Shown piece by piece: positions 47,161 through 61,289 of a stretch of DNA of 61,733 bases. Both the position numbers and the translations under genes were made by a program. Every line of letters starts with the position of its first letter. The stretch's first letter is position 1. The notes beneath the pieces were generated by a model. It saw nothing but the letters and a program-made list of their open reading frames with translations, had not been told where the DNA came from and ran no database searches. Origin of the DNA: Paludibacteraceae bacterium (GTDB lineage Bacteria; Bacteroidota; Bacteroidia; Bacteroidales; Paludibacteraceae); NCBI GenBank assembly GCA_017430235.1, contig JAFRNH010000108.1:1-61733 (forward strand), read 5' to 3'.

Positions 47161-47494
47161 ATGCAGATAAAAACAGATGATGGGGAAAAAGCATATTATA
47201 ATGTTGAACATGTAAATGAGACTGTTTTCTATGAAGAGGAGGTAACACCAGATATCAACCATCAGTTTGAATATGTTGATCTTGGTCTCCCAAGCGGTAC
47301 GCTATGGGCAACCTGCAACATATTCTGCCACTTATTGGTCATCTTCATGTGACAAAGAAGTGGCATTTGTCATGCTTTTAAATATATATGCGGAGCGCGC
47401 AGCTGGCACGTTTATTTTCCATCCGGAATGTGAAGGGAAAAACGAAGAGCGTGCATACGGTCGGTATGTACGTGCTGTACGATCCACTCCTTAG
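47161..47494 (+). pseudogene. Decayed FISUMP-domain gene (internal deletion, frameshift, no signal peptide)
   Basis: A remnant related to the FISUMP-like gene at 59589. From 47161 frame 1 reads MQIKTDDGEKAYYNVEHVNE and YVDLGLPSGTLWATCN, which match MQVKTTDGQIVRYNVDEIKQ and YVDLGLPSGLKWATCN of that gene. At about 47318 the coding sense jumps to frame 2, which reads TYSATYWSSSC and ends in GRYVRAVRSTP, matching the typical C-terminal end of a FISUMP module. The middle of the module, probably more than 100 residues, is gone. The N-terminal signal peptide is also missing, since the first Met is only 20 bp from the preceding stop codon. Fragment sequences look recent rather than ancient. Confidence 0.82.
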
Positions 47495-47509: not shown

Positions 47510-48700
47510 TTAATTTAGAAGGAAATCACCTATCCAAACGCATTGCACACCGTTGATATTGCCACATTGAAGTTTATCAGCCACAACAATGTATTTGGGG
47601 TGATTATCTTTTATCTCTTGAAGGGGAGTCAATTCTCGTAATCGTGTTTTTTCATCCTCCATCGTATATGTTACTTGTACGTAGATAATATCGTTGCCAT
47701 TTATAGCGACAAAATCTACTTCCAACGATCCCAATTTACCGATATATACTTTGTACCCTTTGCGTATAAGGTGCAGATAGACCAAATTCTCTAGATAGCC
47801 AGCTATTAAATCTGGCATATAACCATATTTGGAATGGAGCAGGGAGATATCCGAAAAGAAGAATTTCTCATTTGTTTGCAGTACCTCTTTCCCCTTCAAA
47901 TCGTATCGATTCACCCTGTGGATGATATACGAAGACTCTAATGCGCGCACATAGTTATACAGTGTCTCCACATCAATCTTTCGTTGTTGGTTTTTCAGAT
48001 ATGCAGAGATGTTTTTAGCACTAAATGCATTCCCTATGTTGATCATCAGATAACCCGCCAAACGTTCTAATGCGTCAATGTTTCGAATGTTATTTCTTTG
48101 GATGGTGTCTCGCAGCAACACTGATGCAAAGATATCAGAAACGATCTTGTAAACTTCCTCCTCCGTGTGTTCTGCGTTATGAGCGGAAGGGAACCCACCC
48201 TCTCTAAGGTAACGGTAAAAAGCCTTTTCGGTTTCTTCTATGGAATGGAACTCCATAAATTCGGACAGAGACAGAGGAAATACGGGAATCTCAATGTAAC
48301 GTCCTGTTAAATAGGTTGATAACTCAGATGATAACATCCTGGAATTGGAACCTGTTATATAAACATCAACATCAAAATCCACCATAAAAGAGTTGACCGC
48401 CTTTTCCCAATTTTTCACTTCTTGGATTTCGTCTAAAAAGATGTATGTTTTGCCATCGGGACTTATCTTTTGACTAATATAGTTGTATAATGCCACAGAG
48501 TCCAACAGATTGATCCATCGAAAACTTTCGAAGTTGATATACACAATACGATTCTCAGGAATGCCTTGGTGCAGTAATTCATCGCGGATCATTTTTATCA
48601 GCTCAGATTTACCACTTCGCCTAATACCAGTCAGAACCTTTATGATGGGTTGGTTCACAAAAGGCATTATTTTCTTTATGTACAAATCTCTTTTTATCAT
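47510..48700 (-). CDS. AAA+ ATPase with DUF4143 domain
   Basis: 396 residues from the ATG at 48700 (MIKRDLYIKKIMPF), the usual start of this family; an in-frame ATG at 48733 would lie inside the promoter-proximal repeat. Walker A is LTGIRRSGKSELIKMI, Walker B is TYIFLDEIQEVKNWEKAVN, and sensor 1 is VYITGSNSRMLSSELSTYLTGRY. The C-terminal DUF4143 part has LEVDFVAINGNDIIYVQVTY, which resembles a PD-(D/E)xK nuclease core but ends in Q-x-T rather than E-x-K. These ATPases are very common in Bacteroidota and often belong to accessory DNA; their function is unknown. Three phased palindromes precede it. Confidence 0.87.
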   Translation of the reverse strand: MIKRDLYIKKIMPFVNQPIIKVLTGIRRSGKSELIKMIRDELLHQGIPENRIVYINFESFRWINLLDSVALYNYISQKISPDGKTYIFLDEIQEVKNWEKAVNSFMVDFDVDVYITGSNSRMLSSELSTYLTGRYIEIPVFPLSLSEFMEFHSIEETEKAFYRYLREGGFPSAHNAEHTEEEVYKIVSDIFASVLLRDTIQRNNIRNIDALERLAGYLMINIGNAFSAKNISAYLKNQQRKIDVETLYNYVRALESSYIIHRVNRYDLKGKEVLQTNEKFFFSDISLLHSKYGYMPDLIAGYLENLVYLHLIRKGYKVYIGKLGSLEVDFVAINGNDIIYVQVTYTMEDEKTRLRELTPLQEIKDNHPKYIVVADKLQCGNINGVQCVWIGDFLLN

Positions 48701-48701
48701 A

Positions 48702-48809
48702 CTTATCGGGTTATACTCCATCAAACCACACAAAATTTAATAGTTTATCGGGTTGTACTCCGATAAACTATGCAAATATAATACTTTTATCGGATAATAC
48801 TCCGATAAA
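48702..48809. promoter_or_regulatory. Three palindromic sites in 42-bp phase upstream of the AAA ATPase
   Basis: Three 24-bp sites of the form TTTATCGG-N8-CCGATAAA lie at 48702-48725 (imperfect: CTTATCGG/CCATCAAA), 48744-48767 and 48786-48809 (both perfect). Starts are exactly 42 bp apart, four DNA turns. The spacers are also similar (gttatact, gttgtact, ataatact). The two perfect sites bracket the -7 element of the minus-strand promoter. This looks like an operator array for a dimeric repressor, possibly an autoregulatory one. Confidence 0.75.
48773..48780 (-). promoter_or_regulatory. -7 element of the AAA ATPase gene
   Basis: The minus strand reads TATATTTG. It lies between two perfect palindromes. 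The expected transcription start falls within the 48744-48767 site and the -33 region within the 48786-48809 site, so bound protein should block RNA polymerase. Confidence 0.6.
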
Positions 48810-48910
48810 CTTTTAAAAAATAGAGGAGATGATTCTTTCGGAGGAGGAACGCATCATTGAGATGGAGGGTAGGTCGATCCTATAGTGCCCGACAATCTCT
48901 GCCTTCATAT

Positions 48911-48941
48911 TTTGCAGACATCACAAAAACTTATATCTTTG
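48911..48941 (+). promoter_or_regulatory. Promoter of the methyltransferase leader RNA
   Basis: TTTG (48911-48914), 19-nt spacer, TATCTTTG (48934-48941): an excellent match to the Bacteroidota consensus. Transcription would start near 48949, leaving about 310 nt before the methyltransferase ATG at 49263. Confidence 0.7.
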
Positions 48942-49019
48942 AAAACAAATTAAAAAACTGATTTTTACGAACCAGACAGTAAGAATTTTTAAATAGTAAC
49001 ATACAGCATTAGCTATTAT

Positions 49020-49255
49020 TCTTGTCCAAATCAAAAGCCTGCAAACTGATGATTTAGAATTATCGGATATACGCTAATCCACGGAGAGTCGTACGCTTCC
49101 CGTTGCACCATGTAGAGTTGATGCTCATGCCGTTAAGGTGTGGGCTAATTCAATGGTGCAACGGAGTTCTTGCAGGCTCTCCGTGGACAAGATGGAAAGG
49201 CCCGCACCTTTCTTTTGCCCGATAGCGAGATTGATAGTGATGCGCTAACTATCAA
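49020..49255 (+). ncRNA. Candidate structured leader RNA with two alternative folds
   Basis: Several inverted repeats lie in one transcribed leader. Fold 1: TCCACGGAGAG (49078-49088) pairs with CTCTCCGTGGA (49177-49187), CCGTTGCACCAT (49100-49111) with ATGGTGCAACGG (49153-49164), and GCTCAT (49123-49128) with GTGGGC (49140-49145), giving one hairpin of 110 nt. Fold 2: TCTTGTCC (49020-49027) with GGACAAGA (49185-49192) and AGCCTGCAA (49036-49044) with TTGCAGGCT (49170-49178), which excludes the outer stem of fold 1. Then follow a short terminator-like hairpin GAAAGG/CCTTTC plus TTTT (49195-49216) and the palindrome TTGATAGT-N9-ACTATCAA (49231-49255). I recognise no known RNA class; a switch or separate small RNA is inferred. 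Confidence 0.5.
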
Positions 49256-49262
49256 TCAAGAT

Positions 49263-50321
49263 ATGGCAAACAAAAACCTAAATCAGGCAAAAAGTGCCAA
49301 GAAGGATGAGTTTTATACTCAGTTGGCAGACATTGAAAACGAATTGAAGCACTACAAACAACACTTCAAGGATAAAGTGGTGCTCTGTAACTGTGATGAC
49401 CCTCGCATCAGCAATTTCTTTCACTATTTCAGCTATAATTTTGAACAGTTGGGCTTGAAGAAGTTGATCACCACTTGCTATAAAAGCCAAGAACGTGACT
49501 TGTTTAGCCAAAACAATTCGGAGCGTGCTATTTGGCTTGAATATTTCGGTGATAAGAACAACAACTGTGTGCCCGACCCCGAAGAAATCGGCATCCATTA
49601 CTTTAAAGGAGATGGAGACTTCCGTTCTGCTGAGTGTATAGAACTGCTCAAGGAGGCTGATATTGTGGTGACCAATCCTCCCTTTTCTCTCTTCCGTGAA
49701 TATGTGGCACAATTGATGAAGTATGAGAAGAAGTTTGTGATTGTGGGTCATCAAAACGCTATTCATTATAAAGAGATATTTCCTTTGATCAAGAATAACA
49801 AATTGTGGTTGGGTTATGGTTTTAAAGGTGGTGCAGGTCATTTTATTAGTAAATATGAAGATACAGCAACGGCCGGAGATCATCGTGAAGGTATGATTCG
49901 AGTATCAGGCGTGACATGGTTTACAAACTTAGAGATACAAAAACGTCATGAGGATTTAATCCTTTATAAAACATATAATCCAGAAGAATACCCCAAATAT
50001 GATAATTTTAATGCTATAGAATGTTGTCCAACAGCTAATATACCTTCTGATTATTACGATTTAATGGGTGTTCCTATCACATTCTTAGATAAATACAACC
50101 CAGATCAATTTGAGATAGTGGGGATTTTAAATCATGGGTGCGATAATGAATTTGATTTGGCTAAACCCATACTATATGGCAAAGAAAAATTTGCCCGCAT
50201 TCTCATCCGTCGCCGTCAACAAAACGATATATCCGCTTCATCTTCACAGATTTATCCACAGAGCGACCAACAATCAAGCATGGCGGCAGAGAATCAGGCA
50301 GATTATGGACTTGAAAAATAA
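49263..50321 (+). CDS. EcoRI-type adenine-specific DNA methyltransferase
   Basis: 352 residues from the ATG at 49263 (MANKNLNQAKSAKKDEFYTQ), which is the common start of the EcoRI-methylase family (PF13651). The frame stays open upstream to a TTG at 49170, but those codons lie in the structured leader. VVLCNCDDPRISNFFHYFSYNF is the SAM-binding region, and IVVTNPPFSLFREY is the catalytic NPPF motif of N6-adenine methyltransferases. The C-terminus is a Ser/Gln-rich tail. It would protect a DNA site by adenine methylation. No classical EcoRI-like nuclease follows; instead a DUF262-HNH gene starts 27 bp downstream. The second half is markedly more AT-rich than the next gene. Confidence 0.87.
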   Translation: MANKNLNQAKSAKKDEFYTQLADIENELKHYKQHFKDKVVLCNCDDPRISNFFHYFSYNFEQLGLKKLITTCYKSQERDLFSQNNSERAIWLEYFGDKNNNCVPDPEEIGIHYFKGDGDFRSAECIELLKEADIVVTNPPFSLFREYVAQLMKYEKKFVIVGHQNAIHYKEIFPLIKNNKLWLGYGFKGGAGHFISKYEDTATAGDHREGMIRVSGVTWFTNLEIQKRHEDLILYKTYNPEEYPKYDNFNAIECCPTANIPSDYYDLMGVPITFLDKYNPDQFEIVGILNHGCDNEFDLAKPILYGKEKFARILIRRRQQNDISASSSQIYPQSDQQSSMAAENQADYGLEK

Positions 50322-59588: not shown

Positions 59589-61289
59589 ATGAAAAAATTT
59601 TTACTATCAGTGATGGTGTTCATGCTTGCTATTATAGCGAGTGCATTGACCTATATGCAGGTGAAAACTACCGATGGACAAATTGTAAGATATAATGTAG
59701 ATGAAATCAAGCAAATTGATTTCGAGAAAGATGCAACGACTTCAACAATGTATATGTGTATGAAGACAAATGATGGGAAGGTAGACAAATATGATGTAGA
59801 GAAGGTGATGGAGGTGTCGTGTTTAGAAGACACTATTGTATATGATACAACAGGAACTGTAGCACAAGGGGTGTCTGTCAGTGGTAAAATGAATGAATAT
59901 ACCTTTGTGGATCTTGGTTTGGAAAGTGGATTGTTGTGGGCAACTTACAATGTGGGTGCAACAAAACCGACAGAGAGTGGTGATTACTTTGCTTGGGGAG
60001 AGACAAAAACAAAGGATATGTATAATAGTAGTAATTATAAATGGTATGAAGGGTCAAGTACTTCAGTGAGCAAGTATTATTATAAGCGTAAATTCGGTGA
60101 AATATATTTAGAACCAGAAGATGACGCGGCAATTGTGAATTGGGGATACCCTTGGCATATGCCATCACGTCAGGATTTGAAAGAAATGGTTGATGGGTGT
60201 GATTGGGAATGGACAGAGGATTTTAATGGCTCGGGGATGGCTGGAATTGTCGGAACTTCGAAAAATAATAATAATACTATATTCTTTCCAGCCTCTGGAG
60301 TAGTACAGGCTGATGTCACATGTAATTGGAACCATGCTTGTTGGGCATCCTCTATTCATAATAGTTATTATTATAACGACGCAGATATTTTCATTTATGA
60401 TAATAAAAGACATGATGTAGGTAATGGAGGCCAAAGAGAGTATGGAAGAGCAGTTCGAGCAGTAGTTGATACCAAGTCAAGAAATACTGTTAATTTTTAC
60501 TACTCTGATAGTACTACTCTAATAGAAAGGCAAAAAATTATAGATGGCGGAACTGCAACGGTTCCAGTTGCTCCTCAAATAGCGGACTATGAATTTGTGG
60601 GTTGGAGTGATTCATCATTCACGGATATTCACAATGATTTAAATTTTTATGCAGTTTACAAGAAGATTGTAATTACTACGACTATCAGTGGTGAAATTGG
60701 AGAGCATTCGTATGTGGATTTAGGATTACCTAGTGGATTGAAATGGGCAACATGTAATATTGGAGCTACAAAACCTGAAGAATATGGTGATTATATCGCA
60801 TGGGGAGAAACTAGTCCTAAAGTGGATTACTATTGGACTAATCTCAAATATTCATTAGATGCTGGAGATCATTTTTCAAAATATGTGGAAGATCGATCCT
60901 TTGGAAGTGTAGACAGTTTGTCTGTGTTGGAACCAGAAGATGACGCAGCTGTTGTTAATTGGGGCGAAGAATGGTATACTCCAACTTCAGAAGATTATAG
61001 AGAACTGATTGAAGGTTGTGATTGGAAATGGGTAAAGGACTTTAACGAAACTGGTATTACAGGAAGGTTAGGTGTATCCAAAACCAATGGAAATATCATT
61101 TTTTTCCCTGCTGGAGGATACCGCGACGATGAAGGTCTAGAGGAAATAGACAAAACAGGTTTGTATTGGGCATCAACCATAACAAGATATTCGTATTGGT
61201 CGAATTCTTTTGAAATAAACGCTCAACAAAATTCTTCAACTTCATCTGCTCGTTATTTTGGAGCAAATATTAGACCTGTTGCTAAATAA
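59589..61289 (+). CDS. Exported protein with two FISUMP-like modules and an InlB-type repeat
   Basis: 566 residues with a signal peptide (LLSVMVFMLAIIASA). Two copies of a short strand motif follow (MQVKTTDGQIVRYNVDEIKQ, MCMKTNDGKVDKYDVEKVME). Two FISUMP-like modules are then seen at about residues 95-295 and 365-566, each opening with (F/Y)VDLGL.SGL.WAT.N(V/I)GA and continuing with GDY.AWGET, LEPEDDAA(I/V)VNWG, GCDW.W..DFN and IFFPA.G. Between them lies an InlB B-repeat-like segment (VNFYYSDS, DGGTATVPVAPQIADYEFVGWSDSSF). It is probably a surface protein whose ligand is unknown. A decayed relative lies at 47161, about 12 kb upstream. Confidence 0.85.
   Translation: MKKFLLSVMVFMLAIIASALTYMQVKTTDGQIVRYNVDEIKQIDFEKDATTSTMYMCMKTNDGKVDKYDVEKVMEVSCLEDTIVYDTTGTVAQGVSVSGKMNEYTFVDLGLESGLLWATYNVGATKPTESGDYFAWGETKTKDMYNSSNYKWYEGSSTSVSKYYYKRKFGEIYLEPEDDAAIVNWGYPWHMPSRQDLKEMVDGCDWEWTEDFNGSGMAGIVGTSKNNNNTIFFPASGVVQADVTCNWNHACWASSIHNSYYYNDADIFIYDNKRHDVGNGGQREYGRAVRAVVDTKSRNTVNFYYSDSTTLIERQKIIDGGTATVPVAPQIADYEFVGWSDSSFTDIHNDLNFYAVYKKIVITTTISGEIGEHSYVDLGLPSGLKWATCNIGATKPEEYGDYIAWGETSPKVDYYWTNLKYSLDAGDHFSKYVEDRSFGSVDSLSVLEPEDDAAVVNWGEEWYTPTSEDYRELIEGCDWKWVKDFNETGITGRLGVSKTNGNIIFFPAGGYRDDEGLEEIDKTGLYWASTITRYSYWSNSFEINAQQNSSTSSARYFGANIRPVAK

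What the first reader, a model, noticed from the sequence alone, without database searches (positions are those of the whole stretch)
48949..49262. Long leader RNA with two mutually exclusive folds before a methyltransferase/nuclease pair
A strong Bacteroidota promoter (48911-48941) drives about 310 nt of non-coding leader. Segment 49170-49192 can pair either with 49020-49044 (8+9 bp) or, through CTCTCCGTGGA, with 49078-49088 (11 bp). A 12-bp stem lies inside the second fold. A short terminator-like hairpin with TTTT and a TTGATAGT palindrome follow just before the ATG. This is the architecture of an attenuator or switch, or of a separate RNA component of a defence system, and I know of no described RNA class that matches.
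Basis: partly seen in the sequence, partly recalled or inferred. Interest (0 to 1): 0.78.

Follow-up and report, generated by a model that had tools for sequence, protein, structure and literature searches.

The report
Leader RNA with hypervariable paired stem
A large folded RNA, absent from the RNA catalogue searched, sits directly in front of exchangeable DNA-restriction and cell-surface genes in Bacteroidales bacteria, and one of its stems is replaced far faster than the DNA around it while staying paired, as an identity tag or the target of an arms race might be.

Summary
Window 49005-49258 is one copy of a structured RNA with 89 distinct copies and no Rfam match. Covariation supports helices P2, P3 and P7. 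A second choice, P1 or P10 at the start codon, is conserved but has little compensatory support.

The RNA precedes unrelated restriction-modification genes (EcoRI-type, MmeI-type, other type IIG, type III, N6/N4, Tsp45I) and sometimes envelope enzymes. In three locus pairs the cargo is exchanged where the RNA ends.

Most surprising: the apical stem P6. In six locus pairs with 96-98% identical flanks, 10-16 of 24 arm positions differ, yet the arms still pair (p 7e-8 to 1e-17; pairs chosen by eye).

Best reading: a new class of cis-acting leader RNA gating exchangeable anti-phage cassettes. Its trigger and the role of P6 are unproven; the terminator/antiterminator reading is weak.

The parts
48910..48941 (+). 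promoter-like boxes: TTTTG and TATCTTTG (-33/-7 consensus recalled)
   Evidence: TANNTTTG upstream in 60 of 81 distinct copies, 53 of 65 motif hits 61-100 nt before the RNA; Markov control mean 8.3, max 15; reverse complement 15
48949..49004 (+). A/T-rich 5' stretch, conserved only among close relatives
49005..49258 (+). conserved structured RNA
49006..49243 (+). P1: 49006-49018 with 49232-49243 (excludes P10)
   Evidence: 93.5% of cells paired, no compensatory changes; coordinates
49020..49192 (+). P2: 49020-49027 with 49185-49192
   Evidence: 100% paired, 4 of 8 pairs with changes on both sides
49036..49178 (+). P3: 49036-49042 with 49172-49178
   Evidence: 99% paired, 5 of 7 pairs with changes on both sides
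49078..49187 (+). P5: 49078-49088 with 49177-49187; crosses P3, shares 3 nt with P2
   Evidence: first 7 pairs 94.7% paired, mostly invariant; triple columns 31/92/223 agree in 56 of 57 rows
49101..49163 (+). P6: hypervariable paired stem, 49101-49111 with 49153-49163
49123..49145 (+). P7: inner hairpin 49123-49131 with 49137-49145
   Evidence: 99.2% paired
49137..49208 (+). P8, alternative: 49137-49145 with 49200-49208 (excludes P7 and T)
   Evidence: 513 of 513 cells paired; but about 20 kcal/mol worse in the window and only 5-6 bp in one subtype
49195..49216 (+). T: weak terminator-like hairpin and TTTT
   Evidence: 98.2% paired; not called by the terminator scan
49229..49257 (+). P10: hairpin ending 5 nt before the ATG (excludes P1)
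   Evidence: 98% paired, weak covariation: 12-24 of 500 shuffles reach the observed values
49263..50321 (+). EcoRI-type adenine methylase, PF13651
50349..51431 (+). GmrSD_N + HNH endonuclease (PADLOC REase_II)

Best explanation
A cis-acting leader RNA of a class not in the catalogues searched. It is transcribed from its own promoter and gates whichever exchangeable cassette lies downstream, mostly restriction-modification, sometimes an envelope enzyme. Shown: conserved covarying fold; position directly before the start codon of unrelated genes; cargo exchange where the RNA ends; an apical stem P6 replaced faster than neighbouring DNA with pairing kept. Inferred: expression is gated mainly at the start codon, strand 49231-49237 pairing either in P10 (covers the initiation region) or in P1 (frees it), coupled to the P2/P3/P5 core; the weak hairpin T may be a second gate. 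Inferred: P6 is a private identity or recognition element under diversifying selection, for example so that co-resident cassettes with the same RNA do not regulate each other, or to escape phage interference.
For: Conservation: 89 distinct copies; before the EcoRI-type gene in 56 of 64 Bacteroidales-type records and 0 of 13 others. Structure: 145 cells with changes on both sides against 47 in shuffles. Promoter-like motif 60 of 81 against 8.3. Cargo of unrelated families and exchange at orthologous loci. P1 and P10 nearly equal in energy (1.4 to 2.9 kcal/mol apart); L073, L102 and L349 of a second subfamily keep both options with other letters (by eye). Hypervariable P6, own arms pair better than foreign arms, 69 alleles in 78 copies, strand bias C-G 136 to G-C 37. 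Conserved U-G pairs in P1 and P7 point to RNA, not DNA.
Against: No expression data. P1 has no compensatory changes and P10 few; other second-subfamily members keep them only in part. No partner for P6 found in the locus or own genome. P6 is unchanged in some close pairs (L015/L017, L028/L029, L037/L089, L040/L058, L052/L056). Pairs were chosen by eye. Some cargo is not anti-phage by annotation. Carriers with a title are, so far as seen, metagenome assemblies.
Confidence: 0.5

Rival explanations
1. A ligand-sensing riboswitch (for example for S-adenosylmethionine) with a pseudoknotted aptamer P2/P3/P5; P6 is a peripheral stem replaced passively by recombination.
For: Pseudoknot-like core with near-invariant unpaired A-rich strands; many cargo genes are methyltransferases.
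Against: No Rfam riboswitch matches. Cargo includes a nuclease and envelope enzymes. Passive replacement does not predict repeated change confined to the apical block, nor the strand bias.
Confidence: 0.15
2. A DNA element: a recombination or cassette-exchange site whose palindromes act as DNA hairpins (integron attC-like).
For: Cargo exchange with breakpoints in or just after the GATTGATAGT palindrome.
Against: Conserved U-G pairs; promoter-like boxes upstream; no shared motif seen at the right ends; fixed orientation to the gene. Homologous recombination in the conserved RNA is enough for the left junction.
Confidence: 0.12
3. A trans-acting RNA or RNA-protein component of the defence enzyme, the T hairpin ending the free RNA.
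For: Large complex fold; hairpin with short U tract.
Against: Same RNA before unrelated protein families; hairpin P10 adjoining the start codon; weak terminator.
Confidence: 0.12
4. An antisense-RNA-controlled attenuator like those of some plasmid replication genes (recalled), P6 being the specificity stem.
For: Strand B can pair in P7 or with the loop of T in 57 of 57 copies; hypervariable stem.
Against: Antisense promoter motif not enriched, 19 of 83 against control 16.6; weak terminator; P8 costs about 20 kcal/mol.
Confidence: 0.1

Closest known systems
Antisense RNA control of the EcoRI and Eco29kI R-M systems (passages of review PMC12707154; cited work not read)
   Same: RNA-level control of R-M expression, also for an EcoRI-type system
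   Different: There antisense transcripts arise from reverse promoters inside the nuclease gene; here a sense leader with a conserved fold serves unrelated R-M families, and no antisense promoter is enriched
C-protein controlled R-M systems and their exclusion groups (C proteins: PMC12707154 passages; exclusion groups recalled)
   Same: A control element with private specificity would likewise avoid cross-talk between co-resident systems
   Different: Here the candidate specificity element is an RNA stem; cross-talk is untested
Transcription attenuators and riboswitches (recalled)
   Same: Alternative pairings ahead of a gene, a terminator-like hairpin, a start-codon hairpin
   Different: No ligand known; weak terminator; hypervariable paired stem
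Bacteroidetes RNA motifs of Weinberg et al. 2010 (PMC2864571, table and passages seen)
   Same: Structured RNAs found by comparison in the same phylum
   Different: The words restriction, methylase and methyltransferase do not occur in its main text; the Rfam models found no match here
Integron attC sites (recalled)
   Same: Conserved palindromic element at the border of exchangeable cargo, variable inner stem
   Different: Lies 5' of the cargo, has promoter-like boxes and conserved U-G pairs, no shared right-end motif seen

Membership tests
Any Rfam 15 family | match at or above the gathering score | tested here: not met
   0 matches in the window and in 9 loci with copies; 4 sub-threshold matches at E 1.1-3.9, chance level
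Intrinsic-terminator attenuator | G+C-rich hairpin followed by a U tract | tested here: inconclusive
   hairpin T forms in 98.2% of cells, but the window has only TTTT and the scan calls no terminator
Intrinsic-terminator attenuator | mutually exclusive antiterminator pairing | tested here: inconclusive
   P8 pairs in 513 of 513 cells but is about 20 kcal/mol worse in the window and short in one subtype
Riboswitch | direct ligand binding that changes expression | not testable with these tools
   needs probing and reporters
cis-acting leader RNA | conserved structure, sense orientation, directly 5' of the regulated gene, co-transcribed | tested here: inconclusive
   structure and position met, promoter-like motif enriched; co-transcription not testable
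Cis-antisense R-M control | reverse promoter over the locus | tested here: not met
   TANNTTTG on the minus strand over RNA+150 nt in 19 of 83, control mean 16.6, max 24; other promoter types not covered
Retron ncRNA | adjacent reverse transcriptase | not tested
   no systematic search for reverse transcriptases was made
Integron attC / DNA recombination site | DNA-level palindrome used by a recombinase, common site at both cargo ends | tested here: not met
   no shared right-end motif seen in 6 locus ends and 6 short motifs searched

The most novel reading that the evidence does not exclude
An RNA-encoded identity system for mobile defence cassettes: one leader RNA scaffold docks interchangeable R-M and surface-modification genes, and its hypervariable stem P6 is a private address that keeps co-resident cassettes orthogonal (an RNA counterpart of C-protein exclusion groups), new alleles arising by a process that rewrites both arms of the stem.
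Probability: 0.2. Interest if true: 0.95.

Novelty: new variant of a known kind. Interest (0 to 1): 0.82.

Why it matters
How mobile restriction-modification systems avoid killing a new host, and how several coexist, is an old question. The controls in the review passages read here are promoter methylation, dual-function methyltransferases, C proteins, antisense RNA and translational effects. This would be an RNA layer serving many unrelated R-M families from one scaffold, with a concrete prediction: identical P6 alleles should interfere and different ones should not. A paired stem replaced while its surroundings stay 96-98% identical has, as far as I recall, no close precedent among leader RNAs. 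The RNA also marks loci with exchangeable anti-phage and surface genes, so it can serve as a probe to find more of them.

Tried and rejected
Known RNA families: none match. Coding leader: the in-frame TTG at 49170 is not the likely start, since homologues begin at the ATG near 49263 and the RNA precedes unrelated reading frames. Partner for P6 in the locus: longest matches no longer than for arms of other copies. Partner in the own genome: 14 matches within 1 mismatch, 2 of them P6 itself, against 14 for the reversed pattern. Coupling of P6 to the enzymes: not seen for the EcoRI type (L020/L023 differ in P6 with a near-identical methylase; L028/L029 share the RNA while the methylase differs); open for the MmeI type, where a C-terminal part diverges together with P6 (L016/L018). 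Plasmids and phages: no match with the window RNA. Viral contigs: 95 stretches hold the 16-mer, 80 were returned, of which only L191 (same contig as L113) passed the RNA model; L182 matches the second-subfamily model weakly (E 6e-5). Beyond Bacteroidales: 29 places in 395 class genomes match a 2-mismatch pattern, only the own copy passes the model. Antisense control: motif not enriched.

Limits: no covariance model was built; copies were found with BLAST, patterns and a profile HMM, so distant members are missed. The 57-row alignment A1 is 57 of 77 non-redundant copies; I left out the 20 most diverged, so pairing percentages hold for the main subtype. 75 of 89 copies precede EcoRI-type genes, but many loci were fetched with that protein. 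In the RNA-first search (29 loci besides the own one) it is 19 EcoRI-type, 1 truncated EcoRI-type, 8 others that are or resemble methyltransferase/R-M genes (6 of the 8 scanned; L011 has no Pfam match) and 1 glycosyltransferase. The pairs were chosen by eye, p values uncorrected: 13 pairs, 8 distinct with p below 0.001 (L076/L078 repeats L004/L005; L015/L022 and L017/L022 share a member), L025/L026 0.83 and L009/L010 0.6 (diverged flanks), L015/L017 1.0 (same P6), L028/L029 not parsed.

Full report
What was given. These are in the sequence and the fold is far more stable than shuffles (z -6.43, 0 of 100). Downstream are an EcoRI-type methylase and a GmrSD_N/HNH endonuclease, both typed as type II R-M by PADLOC. 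No Rfam family matches.

The leader is a conserved RNA. A search of 300 family genomes gave matches in 65 at E 0.01, some of them short or chance-like; the long ones show 69-93% identity. In the window's genus 12 of 16 genomes have it. Profile searching of the loci then held gave 89 distinct copies. It lies before the EcoRI-type gene in 56 of 64 records titled as Bacteroidales or alike and in 0 of 13 others, which include three other Bacteroidota (sorted by me from titles; 3 of 80 loci dropped for lack of upstream DNA). Of the 8 misses, L071, L072, L073 and L102 carry a diverged second subfamily. Its 5' element, with up to 1 mismatch, is found at 5 places in 4 of 237 order genomes, and all 5 match a model built from three of those loci. 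In the order 16 of 393 genomes match one RNA query, and 15 of 393 an exact 16-mer, at 17 places, two of them chance hits inside genes. In 395 class genomes only the own copy passed.

Structure. On 57 of 77 non-redundant copies helices P1, P2, P3, P5 (4 pairs), P7 and T form in 97.1% of 2559 cells (shuffles 91.9%, slid versions 36-44%), with 145 cells changed on both sides against 47 in shuffles. RNAalifold, which allows no pseudoknots, finds P1 in part, P2, P3, P7 and T. P2 (4 of 8 pairs) and P3 (5 of 7) carry the strongest compensatory evidence. The two pure states differ by 0.3 kcal/mol (with P10) or 4.0 (with P1).

Two further choices. (a) The strand TTGATAG before the ATG can pair with the 5' end of the RNA (P1) or with CTATCAA next to the ATG (P10). 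P10 pairs in 98% of cells with weak covariation, P1 in 93.5% with none; the states are 1.4-2.9 kcal/mol apart. In the second subfamily L073, L102 and L349 keep both with other letters (by eye); others only in part. (b) Strand B of P7 is complementary to the loop of T in 513 of 513 cells, but that state is about 20 kcal/mol worse, is 5-6 bp in the TTTCGCGTTTACCG subtype, and T has a weak U tract. I therefore place the gate mainly at the start codon and rate the attenuator reading lower.

Transcription. The motif TANNTTTG (Bacteroidota -7 consensus, recalled) occurs upstream in 60 of 81 copies, 53 of 65 hits 61-100 nt before the RNA (Markov control mean 8.3, max 15; reverse complement 15). With a -33-like box it is 15 of 81 against 1.0 (max 5). 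Antisense motifs are not enriched, 19 of 83 against 16.6.

Cargo. 75 of 89 copies precede EcoRI-type methylases (biased by the search). Ten of the other 14 were scanned: MmeI-family type IIG (L016, L021), another type IIG (L026), type III Mod (L013), N6/N4 methylases (L024, L136), Tsp45I (L135), acyltransferase (L256), glycosyltransferase (L027), and L011 without match. Of 12 further distinct copies from the order search, 7 precede EcoRI-type genes, 2 sulfatase-domain proteins (L327, L332), 1 a GDSL hydrolase (L325), 1 a ResIII helicase (L326) and 1 a short reading frame that was not scanned (L329). In the second subfamily L349 precedes an acyltransferase and L348 a gene without Pfam match. 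Three locus pairs keep 92-97% identity upstream and through the RNA, lose it inside P10 or at the gene start, carry different cargo (type III against type IIG; acyltransferase against EcoRI-type; EcoRI-type against type IIG) and regain it downstream. The right ends show no shared motif.

The hypervariable stem. P6 arms pair with their own partner (mean score 30.1) better than with arms of other copies (17.4; 1.4% of foreign pairs reach the own median). 78 parsed copies hold 69 alleles. In close locus pairs the arms differ far more than the flanks: L016/L018 16 of 24 against 49 of 1493 (p 1.1e-17), L012/L020 12 of 24 against 44 of 1495 (3.6e-12), L004/L005 11 of 24 against 27 of 1414 (1.8e-12), L129/L139 12 of 24 against 43 of 1295 (1.5e-11), L017/L022 10 of 24 against 62 of 1441 (5.0e-8), L044/L046 10 of 24 against 52 of 1182 (6.9e-8), L015/L022 10 of 24 against 134 of 1481 (2.9e-5), L020/L023 11 of 24 against 203 of 1467 (1.9e-4). 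These pairs were chosen by eye; other close pairs keep P6 (L015/L017, L028/L029, L037/L089, L040/L058, L052/L056). In L016/L018 the outer RNA (0 of 96, 0 of 92) and the enclosed P7 (1 of 30) are almost unchanged, so both arms changed without what lies between. In L012/L020 the whole apical block changed (P7 10 of 31). The same allele occurs in diverged RNAs (L014/L022, 89.3% identical elsewhere; L015/L026, 86.7%). C-G pairs outnumber G-C pairs 136 to 37 in the 48 of 69 alleles with equal arms, so the strands are not interchangeable. Drift alone cannot explain this; recombination of alleles, a local rewriting process and diversifying selection can. Assembly error cannot be excluded for single cases: carriers with a title are, so far as seen, metagenome assemblies.

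Verdict. A cis-acting leader RNA, new to the catalogues searched, gating exchangeable anti-phage cassettes, with P6 as a candidate identity or recognition element. My odds: real structured RNA 0.97; cis-acting leader 0.8; P1/P10 gating 0.45; P6 as specificity element 0.35. No paper describing it was found (listings; open-access PMC only, no bioRxiv library), nor in the passages of PMC2864571 and PMC12707154 that I read.

Noticed in passing
window 47510-48733 (-); L009, L034, L057, L062: An AAA_14/DUF4143 ATPase lies next to the RNA in the window; relatives lie upstream of the RNA or its methylase in L009, L034 and L057, and downstream in L062.
   Followed up: no
L306 about +1883 to +2813 and L304 about +4037 to +4964 from the RNA start: ORFs with similar N-terminal sequences stand between methylase and nuclease (L306) or behind the nuclease (L304) (by eye); not scanned against families.
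   Followed up: no
L182 (viral contig) 841-1016 and 1057-1809: A weak second-subfamily RNA match stands before a GIY-YIG domain protein.
   Followed up: partly
L080 1593-1640: A second short copy of the RNA's 5' part lies about 1.1 kb upstream of the full RNA.
   Followed up: no
window 47162-47494 and 59589-61289: The ORF at 59589-61289 repeats a VDLGLxSGLxWATxN motif; a truncated similar stretch lies at 47162-47494 (by eye).
   Followed up: no
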